NCBI GenBank assembly: GCA_004293815.1
Contig: RDZD01000008.1
Span: 62,001 to 126,000 of the forward strand
DNA from: Cytophagales bacterium
Lineage (GTDB): Bacteria; Bacteroidota; Bacteroidia; Cytophagales; Bernardetiaceae
Direction of reading: 5' to 3'
Length of the DNA stretch: 64,000 nt
A program made the position numbers and the translations under genes. Positions within the stretch are counted from its first letter, which is position 1; every line of letters starts with the position of its first letter. Positions 2,976-48,973 of this stretch are shown piece by piece. Below the pieces are notes generated by a model, which searched no databases, was not told the origin of the DNA, and saw nothing but the letters and a program-made list of their open reading frames with translations.

Positions 2976-4394
2976 ATGAAAAAAAAGCGCATACAGCCCG
3001 AAGAACTTGAACAGCTCACGATTCAGGAAGCTACCTCTGAAGGCTTTTGTATGGCCAAAACTGCTGATGGGAAGGTGGTTTTTGTACGTCATGCAGCCCC
3101 TCAAGATGTGGTAGATATACGCATCACAAAGCAACATCGCCGATTTGCAGAAGGTGAAATCGTTAAATTTCATCAGAAATCGCCACTTCGTGTTGCACCT
3201 GTTTGTTCACATTATGGGGTTTGTGGCGGCTGTAAGTGGCAGCACCTGAGCTATGAGCATCAGTTGGCTTTTAAAGAAAAACAGGTTATAGACAATTTGG
3301 CACGGATAGGCAAGGTAGAACTTCCGCAGCTAACGCCTATTTTAGGGTCTGAGAATCAATATTTTTACCGAAATAAACTAGAGTTTACGTTTTCTACGCA
3401 ACGCTGGTTAACGGATGAGGAGGTAAAAACCACTGAAAGTTTTGATGAGCAAGGCCGTTTGGCCTTAGGCTTTCATATACCGCAGCGTTTTGACCGAGTT
3501 TTAGATATACAATCCTGTCATTTGCAGTCAGATTTCTCTAACCGCATCTTGAATGCTGTACGCGATTTTGCGAAAGCAGAAAAGCTAAGCTTTTACGATT
3601 TACGTACCCATACGGGCTTATTGCGTACTCTCACCATTAGACAAAGTGTGCGGCAGGAGCACATGGTCATTGTGCAGTTTGGTGCTAAGGAAGACGATAC
3701 TATTGAGCTTTTGATGCAGCATTTGGCTAAAAATTTTCCTGAAATAGCCTCTCTGAATTATCTTATCAACACCAAAAAGAACGATACTTACCAAGACCAA
3801 GATATTGTTTGCTATAAAGGCCAGCCCTACATTACGGAATACATGGAAAATTTGCAGTTTAGGGTGAGTCCTAAATCTTTTTTTCAAACCAACTCTGGGC
3901 AGGCTTACCGCCTCTACAAACTGGTTCGCGATATGGCGCAGCTCAACTCTACTGACCGTGTATATGATTTATATACCGGAACGGGCACTATTGCCTTGTT
4001 TTTAGCGGCTCAAATTCAGCGAATTGTGGGAGTAGAGTATGTTGCTGATGCTATTGCAGATGCACAAAAAAACGCGGAGCTGAATCATATCAAGAACGCG
4101 TTTTTTGAGGTGGGTGACATGGCTAAAACCTTCAATGATGCTTTTGTGGAGAGGCACGGCATGGCAGATTTAGTCATCACCGATCCTCCTCGGAGCGGTA
4201 TGCACCCCGATGTGGTGAGTATGCTCACGCGCCTCCTGCCCGCCCGAATCGTGTATGTGAGTTGTAACCCCGCCACACAGGCGCGAGATTTGGCACTCAT
4301 GGACGCGTATTATCGCGTAGCGGCGGTTCAGCCTGTGGATATGTTTCCACACACACCGCATGTGGAAAACATAGTGAGACTCGAGAGACGCTAA
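2976..4394 (+). CDS. rlmD: 23S rRNA (uracil-5-)-methyltransferase, RlmD/RumA family
   Basis: A 472-residue cytosolic enzyme predicted to methylate a uridine of 23S rRNA using S-adenosylmethionine. The N-terminal ~60 residues look like a TRAM RNA-binding domain. The [4Fe-4S] cysteines are C77, C83 and C86 in a CxxxxxCGGC cluster, plus C181. The SAM-binding motif is DLYTGTGT, followed by DPPRSG, and the catalytic nucleophile is C430 in VSCNP. All hallmarks of the RumA/TrmA superfamily are intact and the length is normal. RlmD and RlmC cannot be separated by eye; Bacteroidota proteins of this type are usually annotated RlmD. Base composition returns to the window norm here. Confidence 0.92.
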   Translation: MKKKRIQPEELEQLTIQEATSEGFCMAKTADGKVVFVRHAAPQDVVDIRITKQHRRFAEGEIVKFHQKSPLRVAPVCSHYGVCGGCKWQHLSYEHQLAFKEKQVIDNLARIGKVELPQLTPILGSENQYFYRNKLEFTFSTQRWLTDEEVKTTESFDEQGRLALGFHIPQRFDRVLDIQSCHLQSDFSNRILNAVRDFAKAEKLSFYDLRTHTGLLRTLTIRQSVRQEHMVIVQFGAKEDDTIELLMQHLAKNFPEIASLNYLINTKKNDTYQDQDIVCYKGQPYITEYMENLQFRVSPKSFFQTNSGQAYRLYKLVRDMAQLNSTDRVYDLYTGTGTIALFLAAQIQRIVGVEYVADAIADAQKNAELNHIKNAFFEVGDMAKTFNDAFVERHGMADLVITDPPRSGMHPDVVSMLTRLLPARIVYVSCNPATQARDLALMDAYYRVAAVQPVDMFPHTPHVENIVRLERR

Positions 4395-4458
4395 AAAATA
4401 ATGTTTCTTCCTTTTCTTTAGATTGATTAACTGCTTTATTCGCAAAAATCTTAGTGCC

Positions 4459-7041
4459 ATGACATTTATACAACAAATAAGCAAACTAATTTTTCTTTTG
4501 AGTCTTGCGTTGCTTTTGTGGCAGTGTAAAACAAACCAAAAAGGCAGCCCCAAAAATAACTTTTCAGGTCAGGGTATATCTTTGGCAACCGACTCTACAG
4601 CAGAAACTGACGGAACAGATACGGTCTTTTATGCTGATACACTGCATAAAAAAATGGCTTTCTATAAAGTTTCCTCACCAAAAACCTTTCAGCTCATCCA
4701 TACCAAGCTCGAGATTACGCCTGACTGGGCTCAGGAAAGTATTTTAGGGCGAGCTACACTGACCGTAACACCATGGTTTTATGAACAGGATAGCTTGGTT
4801 CTAGATGCCAAAGGCTTTGATATCAAGCAAATAAAGATAGATAACCAAGTCGTTAGTAATTTTACCAATACAGGCCGCCATCTTATTATTAAACTGAATA
4901 AGCCCTTTGTTAAAGGCAAAAACTATGAAGTGTTTATCCATTACAGCACCACACCCAAGCTGCTAACCGAGCGCAACCACCCAAGCAAGGCTGAAGAAAA
5001 CGGACTTTACTTTATAAACGCCCAAAAGCAAACACCAAATAAGCCTCAGCAAATATGGACGCAGGGACAAACAGGAAATAATTCCTGCTGGTTTCCTACT
5101 TTTGACCAGCCAAACATACGCACAACGCAGGAAATGCACATCACGGTAGAGAACCGCTTTAAATCGCTGTCTAACGGAAAACTCATTGAATCAAAGCAAA
5201 ACGCTGACGGCACAAGAACAGATATTTGGAAACAAGAAGTTCCGCATCCGCCTTATCTTTTTATGCTGGCCGTGGGTGAGTTTGCAAAGATAACAGAATC
5301 TTGGAAGGATAAAGAAGTAGCCTACTATGTAGAAAATGCTTATAAAGAAGATAGCAAAGCTATTTTTGGACATACTCCTGAAATGATTGGTTTTTTTTCA
5401 AAGTTGTTTGGTTATGAGTTCCCTTGGGATAAGTACAGCCAAGTGGTGGTTCGTGACTACATTTCTGGTGCTATGGAGAATACCTCTGCCTCCGTGTTTA
5501 TGGAAGGTTTGCAGATGGAAAAACGATGCCTCATTGATGACCACTGGGACGATATCATAGCTCATGAGCTTGTACACCAATGGTTTGGTGACTTGGTAAC
5601 CTGTGAGTCATGGGGCAATCTTACCCTCAACGAAGCTTTTGCAAACTATGGAGAATATCTTTGGACAGACTACAAATATGGCCGTGACGAGGCCGACGCG
5701 CATCGTTCGCTAGAGCTTGAAAGCTACCTCAATGAAGCTGAAACTAAGCGCAGGCCTATTGTGCGCTACTATTACGATACCGACGATGAGCTTTTTGATA
5801 ACCACTCTTACGCTAAAGGCTATTTGGTGCTTCACTATCTGCGGAGCATCATTGGGGATGAAGCATTTTTTGCGACCCTAACTCACTATCTCAAACAAAA
5901 TGCCCACAAGAGTGTAGAGCTTGCCAATCTTCGCATGGCTTTTGAAGAGACCTCCGGGCTGGATTTAACCCTTTTCTTTGAGCAATGGCTACTCACCGCA
6001 GGACACCCCGAACTGAAAGTAACACATGAATACAAAAATAATCGCGTGTATCTGCATGTAGAACAAGCTCAGATAGAAGCATTGAGTACTACTTTTCAAA
6101 TTCCTTTTGAAGTAGAAATATGGGAAAATAATCAGGCGCGTATAGAAAAAAGTACCATCACCAACAAAAAGCAAACATTCTCTTGGCCTTTGAGTTCAAC
6201 GGCTGCCTCTTGTGTGGTTTTTGACCCACGTGGATTAATTCCAGCACGCATAACACACGATAAAGATCTCAAAGAATATGCTTTTCAGGTAAAAAACGGG
6301 CGTTACTTCGCTACAAAATACCAGGCTTTCAAGCCCTTGTATGCAGCCTTTCCAAGCGAACAAGCCCAGTACGCATGTCTTGATGCCATGCAAGACCCCT
6401 CGCACCAAATCAGGCAGGCAGGCTGTGAGGGTTTTCTTGAGCCTGTAGAAAAATTGGTACCCAGTGCTGTAGATTTACTCAAAAAGGCTTTTAACACTGA
6501 CCCTAGTTCTGGTGTGCGTATGCTGGCTTTAGATGGGCTTTTGGCTCAAAATGCTATGGAAGACATGCTTATAGACAGAGCGTTACAAGATACATCTTAT
6601 TACGTGATGAGTAGTGGTATTTATGCTTTGGCACTTACCAAAGGCCCTGAGGCGCGCCCAATCGTAGAAAAATACGAGCACTATAATGAAAAACATTTAG
6701 TGGCCATTATTGCTAATTTTTATAGCCAACTCCGCATAGAAGGAAAGTACGAATGGTTTATAGAAAAGCTAAACCGAGTGTCTGGTTCGGAACTGTCTTA
6801 TTTGCTTCAACCTTTTACGACTTACCTCATGGGGTCTGAGGGTGCTGTTCTAGACAAGGGTATGGTATTTTTAGTACAAATGGCACAAAAAAATAACTAT
6901 TTTCAAACACGAAAAGATGCTATTCAAGCACTTAGTCTGTTAGAAAGCTTCAGTAACAAGCCTGCGGCTTTAATTGCAGATCTCAAGAAAAACGAAAAGG
7001 ACAAGCGAGTTCTGGAGTGGATAGATTATCTGGGGCACTAA
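4459..7041 (+). CDS. M1 family zinc aminopeptidase, exported
   Basis: An 860-residue metallopeptidase. I start it at the ATG at 4459; the frame extends to a TTG at 4423, but the ATG gives a compact signal or lipoprotein leader ending in WQC. The M1 signatures are GAMEN at residues 337-341 and HELVH at 369-373, followed by the third zinc ligand Glu392 after exactly 18 residues. The C-terminal third is helical, as in M1 enzymes with a HEAT/ERAP1-like domain. The enzyme should remove N-terminal amino acids from peptides in the periplasm or at the outer membrane. Its stop codon overlaps that of the convergent methyltransferase gene. Confidence 0.93.
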   Translation: MTFIQQISKLIFLLSLALLLWQCKTNQKGSPKNNFSGQGISLATDSTAETDGTDTVFYADTLHKKMAFYKVSSPKTFQLIHTKLEITPDWAQESILGRATLTVTPWFYEQDSLVLDAKGFDIKQIKIDNQVVSNFTNTGRHLIIKLNKPFVKGKNYEVFIHYSTTPKLLTERNHPSKAEENGLYFINAQKQTPNKPQQIWTQGQTGNNSCWFPTFDQPNIRTTQEMHITVENRFKSLSNGKLIESKQNADGTRTDIWKQEVPHPPYLFMLAVGEFAKITESWKDKEVAYYVENAYKEDSKAIFGHTPEMIGFFSKLFGYEFPWDKYSQVVVRDYISGAMENTSASVFMEGLQMEKRCLIDDHWDDIIAHELVHQWFGDLVTCESWGNLTLNEAFANYGEYLWTDYKYGRDEADAHRSLELESYLNEAETKRRPIVRYYYDTDDELFDNHSYAKGYLVLHYLRSIIGDEAFFATLTHYLKQNAHKSVELANLRMAFEETSGLDLTLFFEQWLLTAGHPELKVTHEYKNNRVYLHVEQAQIEALSTTFQIPFEVEIWENNQARIEKSTITNKKQTFSWPLSSTAASCVVFDPRGLIPARITHDKDLKEYAFQVKNGRYFATKYQAFKPLYAAFPSEQAQYACLDAMQDPSHQIRQAGCEGFLEPVEKLVPSAVDLLKKAFNTDPSSGVRMLALDGLLAQNAMEDMLIDRALQDTSYYVMSSGIYALALTKGPEARPIVEKYEHYNEKHLVAIIANFYSQLRIEGKYEWFIEKLNRVSGSELSYLLQPFTTYLMGSEGAVLDKGMVFLVQMAQKNNYFQTRKDAIQALSLLESFSNKPAALIADLKKNEKDKRVLEWIDYLGH

Positions 7042-7676
7042 GCCAGTTTTCTACAAATCAAGATGGTTTGTATGCCGATAGCACCATCATTGCGTGTATA
7101 TGTGATGCGTTCGGTGTATAAAATTGCAAACCCTACACGCACTAGCTCTGTGCTAACGTCCTCGTGTGTATGCTGGTGTACAAGCATAGAGACAAGGCCG
7201 TCGCTACTGGTTTCGTACAGAGACAAAGGTTCTTCATTTTCTAAAAAACTGACGTAAAAGACTCCAAGTTTGTCCAATATCCTTGCTGTGTCCGTGAAAA
7301 GCTTTTTGCAAGCCTCGAATGTCAAGTAGGGCATACAAAAACCACATACAACCCCTTGGTAGCAAGGCTGTATCGTATGAAGCTGTTCCGCATCAAGGAC
7401 AAAAAAACGCACATCTGGAACATTCTTTTGAGCCAAAACCACCATGCTAGGTGCAAAGTCTGTAGATTCTATTTCTAAATCAGGTCTCTGAGTTTTGAGA
7501 TAACGGGTAATATTACCTGGGCCACAACCAATTTCAAAAACACGGCTCTGAATGGGAAGAAAACTTAAAAACAAGTCATAAGATTTGTCGTAAATCTTCA
7601 TATCCATAAATCTGGCCTCATATTTTCGGCTCATCAAGTCCCATGTTTCTTTTGTAGGAAGATTTAATGGAATCAT
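7038..7676 (-). CDS. Class I SAM-dependent methyltransferase
   Basis: A 212-residue protein with the class I methyltransferase motif I, FEIGCGPGN, near residue 45, preceded by a helical N-terminus. Motif II lies around ESTDFAPSM, where an acidic residue would contact the SAM ribose. The substrate cannot be told from the sequence. It converges on the aminopeptidase gene and the two stop codons interlock (bases 7038-7041), leaving no room for a separate terminator. Confidence 0.85.
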   Translation of the reverse strand: MIPLNLPTKETWDLMSRKYEARFMDMKIYDKSYDLFLSFLPIQSRVFEIGCGPGNITRYLKTQRPDLEIESTDFAPSMVVLAQKNVPDVRFFVLDAEQLHTIQPCYQGVVCGFCMPYLTFEACKKLFTDTARILDKLGVFYVSFLENEEPLSLYETSSDGLVSMLVHQHTHEDVSTELVRVGFAILYTERITYTRNDGAIGIQTILICRKLA

Positions 7677-7727
7677 ATGCTTTACTTTTACTTCTCACTT
7701 TTTAACAACAGAGTTGTGGAGTAGATT

Positions 7728-8060
7728 CTATTCTTCTTCTGGCTGGATTTTGATGGGTGGCTCTGTGCTTTGTTTCAAACCCAAAGGCATCACTTTCTGC
7801 ATGATGTCTGACTGTCGCCATTGTTTCATATAATCAGCTTTGGTAGTTATGTACTCAATGCGCATTTCTTCCACCTCACGTCGCAAAGTGTTCATTTCCT
7901 TAGCAGTACGCTCGGTTTGGTTTCTGTTGGCGATGTAGATAACTCCTAAAACAGCCAGATAAGCCAAATAAGGCATAAACTTATACAAAAGTCCCTCGTC
8001 GAGTTTGAAATCGCGTTCCAGAAAACGACCAGCTGAAGTTTTAAAATTTTCTTGAGACAT
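7728..8060 (-). CDS. ftsL: FtsL-like cell division protein (Bacteroidota type)
   Basis: A 110-residue bitopic protein with a ~40-residue cytoplasmic N-terminus, one transmembrane helix (about residues 27-45), and a periplasmic coiled coil rich in Arg, Glu and Lys. It ends in a MPLGLK...PP-I-I pattern that I recognise from Bacteroidota FtsL-family proteins. FtsL works with FtsB, FtsQ and FtsW/FtsI at the division septum. In this phylum the gene normally sits between rsmH and ftsI; here it lies 6 bases downstream of kmo, with no division or cell-wall gene beside it. It could be a second FtsL-like paralogue. Confidence 0.7.
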   Translation of the reverse strand: MSQENFKTSAGRFLERDFKLDEGLLYKFMPYLAYLAVLGVIYIANRNQTERTAKEMNTLRREVEEMRIEYITTKADYMKQWRQSDIMQKVMPLGLKQSTEPPIKIQPEEE

Positions 8061-8066
8061 ATTAAC

Positions 8067-9464
8067 TCAGACGTTGATTTGAAGTTTCTGCTGAAGTGCT
8101 TTGACGATAGCTCCAAAGTTGAGTTCATGCCATTCATGGGCAATATTGGGTTGCTGCATGACTTTACTCATGACATCGTCTTGGAGTTTTCCTATTCTTA
8201 AGGCTTCAGAATAAGGAATTTGTGGGCTAAAAGTAACCATGCTGTAAAGAGGTAGCCAGTCGTTTGGAAACAGCTCATGGATTCTAGCTTCTATTTTTTT
8301 GCGGAGCAAAAACATAGGCTCGGCTACTTTGTCACGCATTTCTATAAAGTTTGCCAAGGCTAAATCAGCTATTGCATTGCCTTCTTTAACGCGTTTTTGC
8401 TGATAGAGAGGCAGCACCTTTTCCCAGTTATCTTGGCACTCGTCCAAAATTTGGTTCAATACAAAACAATCTTCAAAGCCAGCATTCATACCCTGCCCAT
8501 AAAAAGGCACAATAGCATGTGCAGCGTCGCCAATCAAAAATAGGTTCTTGCCATAAACCCAAGGTGAGCAACGCACCGTTACAAGCGAAGCCACAGGATT
8601 TTGGTTCCAAACTGACAGGTAGTCTGGCATGAGCGGAATAGCATCGGCAAAATATTTTTCTACAAAAGCACGCACATCACTTTCAGTTTGCAATCGATTG
8701 AAAGCTTCTTGGCTGTGTGAGTCAGCCTCATGCGCCAAAAAAAGTGTGCAGGTAAAACTTCCGTCTAAGTTGGGTAGGGCAATAAGCATGAATTGATGAC
8801 GAGGCCATATATGCAAAGCATTTTTTTCCATCAAAAACTTTCCATTTGCACCAGCTGGAATGTGTAGTTCTTTGTAGGAGTGCTCAAGATAGGTTTGAGA
8901 ATAATCAAAGCGGTTGGTTTTTTGGAGCGTGGAACGCAATACAGAAAAAGCCCCATCAGAGCCACAAGCCAAATCGTAAGTCTGCTGTTGGGTCTCGCCT
9001 GTTTTGGTGTTACGCCACCATATTTGAGAATTTTCTAAGTCTATTTTTTCACATTCTTGGTCAAAGTGAAAATTGACGTTGGGTAAAGAATCTGCCAGTT
9101 CTACCAAACGGCGATTTAGCCCGCCTCTACTCACCGAGTAGATAGCCTGTTGCGATTTGCCGTAAGGTTGGTAAGTAAGCTCGCCGTTCAAGTCGTGCAT
9201 CATACGCCCATACATAGGAATAGCGACACTTTCTATTTCAGAGCCTATTCCCGCAGCTCGGAGCGCGTTCCAGCCGCGATCGCTCAAGGCGAGATTGATA
9301 GACCGCCCCGCATAGGCATCGCTTGCGCGATAGTCCGATCTTTTTTCATAAACATCTACGCGGTAACCGCGTTTGGCCATCACGATAGAAAGTAAAGCAC
9401 CCACTAAACCGCCGCCTATAATCGTGAGGTGTCGTGAGGAGTTTCTGTTATCAGAATTTGTCAT
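8067..9464 (-). CDS. kmo: Kynurenine 3-monooxygenase
   Basis: A 465-residue flavoprotein hydroxylase predicted to convert L-kynurenine to 3-hydroxykynurenine using NADPH and O2, in tryptophan degradation or quinolinate/NAD synthesis. The FAD dinucleotide motif GGGLVG is at residues 17-22, and the second FAD motif GDAAHA starts at G312, followed by PFYGQGMN as in KMO and related p-hydroxybenzoate-hydroxylase-type enzymes. The length is normal for bacterial KMO. No kynureninase or tryptophan dioxygenase gene is in the window. The upstream gap has a lone -7-like box at 9495-9502 on the minus strand. The ftsL-like gene follows after 6 bases and is probably co-transcribed. Confidence 0.88.
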   Translation of the reverse strand: MTNSDNRNSSRHLTIIGGGLVGALLSIVMAKRGYRVDVYEKRSDYRASDAYAGRSINLALSDRGWNALRAAGIGSEIESVAIPMYGRMMHDLNGELTYQPYGKSQQAIYSVSRGGLNRRLVELADSLPNVNFHFDQECEKIDLENSQIWWRNTKTGETQQQTYDLACGSDGAFSVLRSTLQKTNRFDYSQTYLEHSYKELHIPAGANGKFLMEKNALHIWPRHQFMLIALPNLDGSFTCTLFLAHEADSHSQEAFNRLQTESDVRAFVEKYFADAIPLMPDYLSVWNQNPVASLVTVRCSPWVYGKNLFLIGDAAHAIVPFYGQGMNAGFEDCFVLNQILDECQDNWEKVLPLYQQKRVKEGNAIADLALANFIEMRDKVAEPMFLLRKKIEARIHELFPNDWLPLYSMVTFSPQIPYSEALRIGKLQDDVMSKVMQQPNIAHEWHELNFGAIVKALQQKLQINV

Positions 9465-46414: not shown

Positions 46415-48973
46415 ATGTTGATTAAAGATGCGTTTATTTCTTATGGCAGAAAAGAAAGCGTTGCTTTTGCGGCTAGAATATTCCAAACACTCAAGCTCAA
46501 TGGATACGAAGTTTGGTTTGATAAAGTAAATATTCCTATTTCTGAGCAGTGGCGCATTAGCATAGACGATGGTATTAGAAGTGCTAAAAATTTTATTTTT
46601 GTGATGGCGCCCCACTCTGTGGCCTCCAAAAACTGCCTAGAAGAACTAGAGCTTGCTCTCAAATACGGTAAGCGCATCATTCCCGTCATGCACGTTAATG
46701 AAAGAGACAAGAGCAATTGGCAAACGGTTAATGGTCTGATAGGCAAATATCACCGAATTGAAGCCAAAGAAGATGTTCAAGACGTAACAGACCTCAAAAA
46801 GTGGGCCGACGGCATGGAAAATCGTTGGGACGAGCTAGAAGACAGGGTTTTTCTAAGCACATGGTCACCTTTCACTTTTCCGCCTATAGATAATTTTGAG
46901 GAGGCTATGAAAGAAATCATGAAGGTGATTGAAAAACACAAAACCTACGTTTCCACTCATACAGAACTCCTTGTCAGAGCCAACCACTGGGATAAGCATG
47001 GACATGCTACCAAGTACTTGCTCGTGGGCGATATACGCAAACGGGCAGAACTATGGCTGGACGAAGAGTTTGTAGCTCCTGATCAACCTCCTTGCTCTCC
47101 CACCGAACTGATTTGTGATTATATATCGGAAAGTGCTCAGAATGCTAACAACTTGCTTTGTGATGTATTTTTGTGCTTCTCATCTAAAGATAAAGCCGTT
47201 CTGCGCCATATCAACTATGCTCTCAAGCGCAAGGGTATTACTACTTGGACTTATCGCTCTGATACACGTATAGGTGAGGACTTTGAAAAAGCGACTCAGC
47301 GCGGTGTTCTTCAAGCAGCTTCTTTTGTCATATTGATATCACAAAACTCTCTAGCGGCTGGACACTGTCTGGATGAGTTGGAATATGCACGCTCTCTAAA
47401 CAAGCGCATTATCCCAATCATGCTAGAAAATGTGCCTGTTTATGATTTGCCAGATGCTTTGCGTGGACTATCAAACATTAACTTTGGCAATGTTATTGAT
47501 TTTATAAACAATCCAGACTCTTCTTATTTGAAGCAAGAATTTGCAGAGTATTGTGCACGGCTCGTGACTGAGATACACTACGATCGCAACTACTTCCGCC
47601 GACACACCATGTATTTGGTGCAAGCCGACCGCTGGCGTAAGCAAAACGAAAACAAAAGTATTTTACTGCGCGGCTATAATCTTTCAGAAGCACAAAGCTT
47701 TCTAAATCAAGGCAAGAGCAGAAGCAACAACCCGCCTCTAGCTCTTCATGAAGACTTTATTAGAGCCAGTGAAATCAATTTAAGTAACCTCTACACAGAT
47801 GTTTTTATCTCTTACTCCCGTGCTGATGCTGATTTTGCGCGGAAGCTAAACTATGAGCTTCAGCTTATGGGTAAAAACACCTGGTTTGATCAAGAAAGTA
47901 TTGCCAAAACATCTAATAACTTTGAGGAAGAGATATACAAGGGCATTGATAATGCAGCTTGCTTTTTGTTTATTATTACCGAAAGTTCTATCAAATCGCC
48001 TTTTTGTACCAAAGAAGTATCTTACGCCCTCAAGCAGCGCAAAAAATTTATTCCTGTACTACTAGAGCCTCTCCAAAGTAAGTTTAGTCTGCCCGCATCA
48101 GTGCAACAAATGCAATGGGTAGATTTTCTGGACAAAGATTTTATGGAAGGCTGCGGTGAAGTGATGCGAAGCCTCGAGATAGATAGAGAACACGCCAACG
48201 AACACAGCAGATGGCTGACAAGCGCGAACGAGTGGGATAGGAACGATAGAAAAGTAGATTATCTACTGGCTAGTGAACCTAGTTTTTTAGCTGCTGATTG
48301 GCTCAAGAACGCCAAGCTGAACAATAAAATGCCTCAGCCCACATACCTACAAGAGGAGTTCATTAATGCTAGCGTCAAGGCCAGAGAAAAGGCCAAAAAA
48401 CGACGCGAGATTGTGGCGAGCAGAAACCGAATTGTTATGTATTTTGCTTTGATTATCAGTGTAGTAGCTATCTTTTTTGCCATCAAGTCAGAACGTAGAG
48501 GCGATGAACTAGAGGAGGCCAAAGCCAAGCAAGATGAGGCTTTTCAAGAGCTTTATGCCAAAAACATAGACTTGATCAAAGCCAAGAACTTTAATGATTC
48601 ACTTAACAGGATAGCCAGAGAAGCAACAGGACAAAATCGTAACTTATCTATTGAGAAACAAAAGCTTGTGGAAGACCTTATTACAGGCGATAAATCACGA
48701 ACTGATTTGGCCGAGCAACTGGGTGCTTGCCAGAGCCAGTACCAAGTACTTGATGCCAAGTATAAAATGATTTCGGAGGACTATCGCCAGCTCAAAGATG
48801 AAAAGGGGAATATTAAAAGCAAACTGCTACGCTACAACCGCACATTTGAGAAGGAGCTAGACAAAATATTCGCACCCAACAGCATTGTGGGCAACAACAA
48901 AGAAGGCATGAAAGCAGCGGTTCGCGAAAACCTCCGCCCTTACAAGGAGCTAGAACGCGATATCAATAAATAG
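46415..48973 (+). CDS. Triple-TIR membrane-anchored coiled-coil protein
   Basis: An 852-residue protein with three TIR domains: about residues 3-130, 248-390 and 460-600. Each begins with a D-x-F-(I/L)-(S/C)-(Y/F) strand and has a glutamate at the place of the TIR NADase glutamate (E77, E321, E534). A ~60-residue linker follows every TIR. All three share a pattern L-x-A-x-x-W, then YLL or ILL, then WL, then P-T-x-L-x-x-x-F-I-x-A-S. One transmembrane helix (about 673-693) is followed by a charged coiled coil to about residue 805. TIR domains signal by assembly or NAD cleavage; whether these cut NAD is inference. No partner gene is adjacent. Confidence 0.88.
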   Translation: MLIKDAFISYGRKESVAFAARIFQTLKLNGYEVWFDKVNIPISEQWRISIDDGIRSAKNFIFVMAPHSVASKNCLEELELALKYGKRIIPVMHVNERDKSNWQTVNGLIGKYHRIEAKEDVQDVTDLKKWADGMENRWDELEDRVFLSTWSPFTFPPIDNFEEAMKEIMKVIEKHKTYVSTHTELLVRANHWDKHGHATKYLLVGDIRKRAELWLDEEFVAPDQPPCSPTELICDYISESAQNANNLLCDVFLCFSSKDKAVLRHINYALKRKGITTWTYRSDTRIGEDFEKATQRGVLQAASFVILISQNSLAAGHCLDELEYARSLNKRIIPIMLENVPVYDLPDALRGLSNINFGNVIDFINNPDSSYLKQEFAEYCARLVTEIHYDRNYFRRHTMYLVQADRWRKQNENKSILLRGYNLSEAQSFLNQGKSRSNNPPLALHEDFIRASEINLSNLYTDVFISYSRADADFARKLNYELQLMGKNTWFDQESIAKTSNNFEEEIYKGIDNAACFLFIITESSIKSPFCTKEVSYALKQRKKFIPVLLEPLQSKFSLPASVQQMQWVDFLDKDFMEGCGEVMRSLEIDREHANEHSRWLTSANEWDRNDRKVDYLLASEPSFLAADWLKNAKLNNKMPQPTYLQEEFINASVKAREKAKKRREIVASRNRIVMYFALIISVVAIFFAIKSERRGDELEEAKAKQDEAFQELYAKNIDLIKAKNFNDSLNRIAREATGQNRNLSIEKQKLVEDLITGDKSRTDLAEQLGACQSQYQVLDAKYKMISEDYRQLKDEKGNIKSKLLRYNRTFEKELDKIFAPNSIVGNNKEGMKAAVRENLRPYKELERDINK

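What the first reader, a model, noticed from the sequence alone, without database searches (positions are those of the whole stretch)
46415..48973. Triple-TIR membrane protein with three matching linkers
The sequence shows three TIR domains in one chain, each with a glutamate in the position of the known TIR NADase residue (E77, E321, E534), each followed by a copy of the same ~60-residue linker, then one membrane helix and a coiled coil. TIR domains signal by close packing or by NAD cleavage (established for SARM1 and bacterial TIR effectors). Three in cis would be prepacked, and the coiled coil could sense or oligomerise. This reads like an internally triplicated module, possibly a membrane-bound immune or stress signaller. 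No partner gene is adjacent, so a defence role is inference.
Basis: partly seen in the sequence, partly recalled or inferred. Interest (0 to 1): 0.72.

Follow-up and report, generated by a model that had tools for sequence, protein, structure and literature searches.

The report
Membrane receptor with three TIR domains
This gene encodes one member of a little-noticed family of bacterial membrane proteins that carry exactly three TIR domains (the NAD-cleaving type) inside the cell and an interchangeable, probably external, sensing part, an architecture for which I found no earlier description in bacteria.

Summary
One 852-aa ORF (46415-48973, +) carries three TIR domains; E77, E321 and E534 align with catalytic glutamates of known NADase TIRs. 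Each TIR is followed by a copy of the same ~65-72-residue module, then one membrane helix and a charged helical tail. The module is predicted to be folded (helical), not a loose linker.
It is not a local triplication. Sixty-one of 64 distinct homologues from 19 Cytophagales genomes, plus one on a cyanobacterial plasmid, share the order T1-K1-T2-K2-T3-K3; in a tree T1, T2 and T3 form three groups: one old triplication, kept at three. T1 and T3 keep the glutamate and W-x-D motif in 61/61; T2 has mostly lost the Asp (present in 5/61) and the Glu in 8/61. The C-terminal part is swapped between paralogues (WD40, TPR, polytopic membrane, WG+FGE-sulfatase, DM9, CHASE2, coiled coil). Flanking charges (58/60) predict TIRs inside, C-terminus outside.
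Most likely: a membrane-anchored receptor-effector in which a C-terminal signal packs pre-linked TIRs into an active NADase. Activity, trigger and defence role are untested; no partner gene is adjacent here. New variant of a known kind.

The parts
46415..48973 (+). triple-TIR membrane protein, 852 aa
46424..46708 (+). TIR1 (aa 4-98), Glu77 at 46643-46645; W34-x-D36 intact
   Evidence: Pfam; Glu and W-x-D in 61/61 homologues
46940..47155 (+). K1, helical module (aa 176-247)
   Evidence: homologous to K2 and K3
47153..47449 (+). TIR2 (aa 247-345), Glu321 at 47375-47377; Asp of W-x-D missing
   Evidence: Pfam; Glu in 53/61, Asp in 5/61 homologues
47576..47791 (+). K2, helical module (aa 388-459)
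47792..48094 (+). TIR3 (aa 460-560), Glu534 at 48014-48016; W490-F-D492 intact
   Evidence: Pfam; 61/61; model pLDDT 86.7 and SARM1-like fold
48182..48379 (+). K3, helical module (aa 590-655)
48431..48487 (+). membrane helix (aa 673-691), basic residues before it
   Evidence: hydropathy 2.56; 60/61 homologues have a helix here; N-in charges in 58/60
48500..48970 (+). C-terminal helical tail, probable coiled coil (aa 696-852), predicted outside the cytoplasm
   Evidence: helical in the low-confidence model; this part is exchanged in other members

Best explanation
A single-gene membrane receptor-effector. Three TIR domains sit in the cytoplasm, held in fixed order by folded helical K modules and tethered by one membrane helix. 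The C-terminal part (here a probable coiled coil) lies on the far side and senses a signal or clusters the protein. Clustering packs TIRs of the same and neighbouring chains against each other and completes NAD-cleaving sites. T1 and T3 are the catalytic copies; T2, whose site is decaying, mainly provides a packing surface. The result is NAD loss or an ADP-ribose-type signal that arrests the cell, probably as a response to phage or another attack on the envelope. Shown by sequence: architecture, homology, conservation of the Glu, old triplication, swapping of C-terminal parts. Predicted: topology, helical K fold. Inferred: NADase activity, packing mechanism, trigger, biological role.
For: T1-K1-T2-K2-T3-K3 in 61 of 64 distinct homologues. 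Glu 61/61 in T1 and T3, 53/61 in T2; W-x-D 61/61 in T1 and T3, Asp in only 5/61 of T2. T1, T2 and T3 each form one side of a branch, T2 with 100/100 support. T3 model pLDDT 86.7, matches SARM1 TIR (Z about 19) and SPARTA TIRs (Z about 18). Membrane helix after K3 in 60/61; more Lys/Arg before than after it in 58/60, the reverse in none. The cyanobacterial homologue ends in CHASE2 (E 1.6e-56), established as an extracytoplasmic sensor. Four paralogues in one genome share 45-61% in the TIR part but have C-parts at or near shuffled level. In bacterial TIR-STING the active site is completed by a residue of the neighbouring TIR and oligomerisation drives NAD cleavage (PMC9402430).
Against: No activity or phage data. 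The Trp that stands four residues before the Glu in SARM1 family members is not kept (a Cys three before the Glu is). The Asp that the partner TIR supplies in TIR-STING was not mapped here. The relative placement of the three TIRs is unknown. No defence genes beside the window gene, and neighbours differ between homologues. WD40 propellers outside the cytoplasm would be unusual, so the topology may be wrong for some members.
Confidence: 0.5

Rival explanations
1. Scaffold only: the three TIRs bind other TIR proteins and recruit a separate effector, as in animal Toll signalling, without cleaving NAD.
For: A fixed number of linked TIRs suits a docking platform; T2 tolerates loss of the Glu.
Against: Glu and W-x-D invariant in 61/61 of T1 and T3 across three families, which a pure scaffold would not need; the only TIR proteins over the cut-off in the own genome are this one and its paralogue.
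Confidence: 0.2
2. Second-messenger maker: the TIRs make a cyclic ADP-ribose isomer that activates a separate effector encoded elsewhere (Thoeris-like); in some relatives the NDT-like protein is a partner.
For: NDT-like gene directly upstream of five homologues and fused to the N-terminus in four; TIR profiles of Thoeris match.
Against: No ThsA-type gene beside the window gene; Thoeris equivalog cut-off not met (59.5 against 220 bits); NDT link absent from the window locus.
Confidence: 0.2
3. Cytoplasmic sensor at the membrane: the C-terminal part is inside (WD40, TPR and coiled coil are commonly cytoplasmic), and the helix only anchors the protein.
For: WD40 and TPR C-termini in many members.
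Against: Charge bias in 58/60; CHASE2 in Kovacikia.
Confidence: 0.2
4. Not defence: an envelope-stress, kin-recognition or developmental regulator of gliding Cytophagales.
For: Housekeeping neighbourhood; many paralogues per genome; no PADLOC model covers the whole protein.
Against: TIR NADase-type proteins studied in bacteria act mostly in antiphage defence; plasmid location beside transposases in two records.
Confidence: 0.25

Closest known systems
Bacterial TIR-STING (Sf STING, CBASS effector; PMC9402430)
   Same: TIR domains with the catalytic Glu; activity arises from packing, with a site completed by the neighbouring TIR
   Different: one TIR per chain with a STING domain for cyclic dinucleotides; here three TIRs in cis, a membrane helix and no STING domain
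SARM1 / C. elegans TIR-1
   Same: TIR fold (T3 model Z about 19) and aligned catalytic Glu; NADase switched on by TIR association
   Different: ARM and SAM domains absent here; three TIRs; membrane-anchored
SPARTA TIR-APAZ (short prokaryotic Argonaute)
   Same: among the closest structural matches of T3 (Z about 18); PADLOC profile E 9.5e-30
   Different: no APAZ, no Argonaute next door
Thoeris ThsB / ThcB4
   Same: TIR part matches
   Different: far below the equivalog cut-off; no ThsA-like gene beside it
Single TIR-K-membrane helix-WD40 protein of Tolypothrix sp. PCC 7712 (WP_264267989.1)
   Same: same TIR plus K module and membrane helix
   Different: one TIR instead of three; stands beside the T1 group in the tree
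Tandem-TIR Tolls of molluscs (PMC4929906) and Dictyostelium TirE (PMC13142454)
   Same: more than one TIR in a chain
   Different: two TIRs, eukaryotic; K modules not reported

Membership tests
TIR domain family (Pfam TIR_2, PF13676) | score over the curated cut-off | tested here: met
   237.1 bits against 28, three stretches
TIR NADases | catalytic glutamate in helix alpha-C | tested here: met
   E77, E321, E534 align with the Glu of known NADase TIRs; 61/61, 53/61, 61/61 in homologues
TIR NADases | NAD cleavage activity | not testable with these tools
   needs an enzyme assay
TIR NADases | TIR packing that completes the active site | tested here: inconclusive
   fold of T3 supported; arrangement of the three not modelled with confidence
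Thoeris (ThsB/ThcB4) | equivalog cut-off of NF058526 (220 bits) | tested here: not met
   59.5 bits
Thoeris (ThsB/ThcB4) | adjacent ThsA-type effector gene | tested here: not met
   adjacent genes are a TadA-like deaminase and a polyprenyl synthetase
SPARTA TIR-APAZ | APAZ domain and short Argonaute gene | tested here: not met
   Pfam finds only TIR families over cut-off; the PADLOC TIR-APAZ profile is matched over its first half only, 5-215 of 430; no Argonaute next door
TIR-STING (CBASS) | STING domain | tested here: not met
   no STING domain among Pfam matches
SARM1 | ARM and SAM domains before the TIR | tested here: not met
   TIR starts at residue 4; no other Pfam domain over its cut-off
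Toll-like receptors (works like, not a member) | outside sensor, one membrane helix, cytoplasmic TIR; LRR ectodomain | tested here: inconclusive
   one helix with N-in charges, but order reversed and no LRR found
Triple-TIR chassis family described here | T1-K1-T2-K2-T3-K3 followed by a membrane helix | tested here: met

The most novel reading that the evidence does not exclude
A class of bacterial transmembrane immune receptors: an externally sensing, exchangeable part coupled to a fixed cis-array of three cytosolic TIRs whose degenerate middle TIR acts as a built-in packing template, so that NADase sites form within one chain. In one relative the array has grown to nine TIRs (3 x 3).
Probability: 0.3. 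Interest if true: 0.82.

Novelty: new variant of a known kind. Interest (0 to 1): 0.62.

Why it matters
The well-studied TIR enzymes bring single TIRs together from separate chains. A conserved array of exactly three, with a decayed middle copy, would make the order and role of each TIR in an active assembly directly testable by mutating one copy at a time. If the topology holds, these would be bacterial receptors that look outward and act through TIRs inside, in a lineage where one genome carries about seven or eight of them with different sensors.

Tried and rejected
Full-length structure (two sequences, all that the rules allowed): pLDDT 48.5, not used. Viral contigs and phage records: no relative. 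Scan of genome contigs found only the 66% orthologue. K profile in 197 other genomes of the class sample: none at E 1e-5, so K is not a general Bacteroidia linker. A partner gene shared by all homologues: none; the commonest neighbour cluster (large proteins, one with a signal-peptide-like start) occurs beside many groups and is probably just an abundant family (not followed). dN/dS: synonymous sites saturated; only pN far below pS can be said. Literature: no bacterial protein with three TIRs in the papers searched; tandem TIRs only in molluscs and Dictyostelium; the library lacks many subscription papers, so this absence is weak. Considered and dropped: an assembly artefact (homologues in about 20 genomes, some in few contigs), and a recent in-gene repeat (copies are about 32-38% identical and position-specific).

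Full report
Observation. The window encodes an 852-residue protein at 46415-48973 on the + strand. Pfam finds three TIR_2 domains (E 5.8e-71). The three segments after the TIRs are homologous to each other: profile comparison gives probabilities of 98.9 to 99.3, and the single sequences score 10 to 14 standard deviations above shuffles; the TIRs score 24 to 29. One membrane helix follows at 673-691. The neighbours are housekeeping genes: a TadA-like deaminase upstream and a convergent polyprenyl synthetase downstream.

A family with a fixed chassis. The own genome (3.0 Mb, 84.7% complete) has a second triple-TIR protein of about 880-896 aa, 37% identical, on another contig. Sixty-four distinct homologues were collected from the order. 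Sixty-one have exactly T1-K1-T2-K2-T3-K3, each domain scoring best with the model of its own position. The exceptions are one contig-truncated protein, one two-TIR protein (L108) and one giant protein with nine TIRs. Of 291 sampled genomes of the order, 19 have the chassis, in three families; of 395 sampled across the phylum only the own genome. A protein of Bernardetia sp. Wsw4-3y2 is 99.3% identical to one of the family-f1 homologues, so f1 is very probably Bernardetiaceae and the window comes from a sister genus. The chassis is also on plasmid pB of the cyanobacterium Kovacikia minuta. A Tolypothrix plasmid has the simple form: one TIR, one K module, a membrane helix and WD-type repeats.

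History. In a tree of 58 TIR copies, T1, T2 and T3 are each one side of a branch (T2 with 100/100 support, T1 94/28, T3 87/52), the Kovacikia copies fall in the matching groups, and the single Tolypothrix TIR stands beside T1 (a larger quick tree with the divergent members is less clean but points the same way). The simplest reading is one triplication of a TIR-K unit before the families and the cyanobacterium came to share it, and almost no change of number since. The nine-TIR protein of G073 (2656-codon open frame) looks like a T1-T1-T2 block duplicated and set before a normal T1-T2-T3.

Active sites. In T1 and T3 the Glu and the W-x-D motif are invariant in 61/61. In T2 the Glu is lost in eight proteins (to C, D, I, Q, A or S) and the Asp of W-x-D is present in only 5/61. 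In the window T2 keeps E321 but lacks the Asp. This points to two catalytic outer TIRs and a middle one under weaker catalytic constraint (inference). The TIR3-K3 unit, modelled from the six repeat units of the window gene and its 66% orthologue, has pLDDT 86.7; its TIR superposes on SARM1 TIR at Z about 19 over 126 residues (rmsd about 1.9) and on SPARTA TIRs at Z about 18. The K module is modelled as helices with good confidence; its fold was not searched on its own. The full-length model is too poor to say how the TIRs lie to each other. Between the window protein and its orthologue T1 is the most conserved part, 81% against 56-68% elsewhere.

Topology and sensors. A membrane helix follows K3 in 60 of 61 homologues. 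Lys/Arg outnumber on the N-terminal side in 58 of 60, on the C-terminal side in none (means 5.8 and 2.8 per 15 residues). By the positive-inside rule (established knowledge) the TIRs are cytoplasmic and the C-terminal part is outside. The C-terminal parts differ: probable coiled coil only (window), TPR, WD40, seven to ten further membrane helices, WG repeats plus an FGE-sulfatase domain, DM9, hemopexin, and CHASE2 in Kovacikia. In one genome (G002) four paralogues share 45-61% in the TIR part while their C-parts are at or near the level of shuffled sequence. That is what a receptor family with exchangeable sensors would look like.

Neighbours. No gene accompanies all homologues. In five of them (L083, L084, L088, L092, L106) a ~140-aa gene in the same direction lies within 200 bases upstream, all five related to each other; two of the three tested score as Nuc_deoxyri_tr2 (PF15891) over the cut-off. 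The same domain is fused to the N-terminus of L084, L088, L092 and L078, and tested over the cut-off in L088. Gene next door in some, fused in others, is good evidence for a functional link in that subset. The window protein has neither; its genome holds one PF15891 gene on another contig.

Mechanism. In TIR-STING, oligomerisation packs TIRs so that a residue of one completes the site of the next and NAD is cleaved (PMC9402430). The same logic with three TIRs held in cis is my best explanation: an outside signal clusters chains through the C-terminal part, T1 and T3 become active NADases, T2 serves packing, and the cell is arrested. Shown: architecture, homology, conservation, swapping. Predicted: topology, K fold. 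Inferred: activity, packing, trigger, role in defence. Confidence 0.5. The rivals (pure scaffold, second-messenger maker, cytoplasmic sensor, non-defence regulator) are listed with their tests; they are not all mutually exclusive, so their probabilities need not sum to one.

Relation to the known. The TIR domains belong to the TIR family and carry the NADase signature. The protein is not Thoeris (59.5 against a 220-bit cut-off), SPARTA, TIR-STING or SARM1 by their defining parts. PADLOC and NCBIfam have no model that covers the whole; all hits are to the TIR part, one extending over the K3 region. In the papers I could search there is no bacterial protein with three TIRs; tandem pairs are known in mollusc Tolls (PMC4929906) and Dictyostelium TirE (PMC13142454). 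I rate it a new variant of a known kind.

Limits. Genome searches were samples and the phylum search used a strict threshold (E 1e-40); other phyla could not be sampled, and the Kovacikia find shows that the chassis is not confined to one phylum. Topology rests on sequence rules. No biochemical evidence exists here.

Noticed in passing
L109+L110 (G073:C4:219858-227825, +): One open frame of 2656 codons with nine TIR domains in blocks T1-T1-T2, T1-T1-T2, T1-T2-T3, extra K modules, a membrane helix, a coiled-coil-like stretch and a WD-like end.
   Followed up: partly
L088:3678-4136 and 4218-8393; also L092, L084, L083, L106, L078: A nucleoside 2-deoxyribosyltransferase-like gene directly upstream of some triple-TIR genes, and the same domain fused at the N-terminus of others.
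   Followed up: partly
L112:7989-11138 (Kovacikia minuta plasmid pB): Triple-TIR chassis followed by a CHASE2 sensor in a cyanobacterium, with transposase, integron integrase and DNA methyltransferase genes nearby.
   Followed up: partly
L058:5663-9121: Triple-TIR protein ending in WG repeats and an FGE-sulfatase domain, perhaps akin to the lectin-type sensors that diversity-generating retroelements alter in other bacteria (PMC10907252); not checked for a retroelement.
   Followed up: no
L108:6078-9491 and L078:736-4491 (G197): Divergent relatives in one genome: L108 has two recognisable TIRs, L078 keeps a good T1 but strongly diverged T2 and T3.
   Followed up: no
G154:C259:42562-44490: A triple-TIR homologue with an in-frame TAA inside the TIR region, possibly a pseudogene or a sequence error.
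   Followed up: no
L111:1037-5506 (Bernardetia sp. plasmid): Three transposase genes (IS4, ISL3, IS1182) just upstream of the plasmid-borne triple-TIR gene.
   Followed up: no
window 46709-46939 (aa 99-175): An insert of about 77 residues between TIR1 and K1, present in some homologues and much shorter in others.
   Followed up: no
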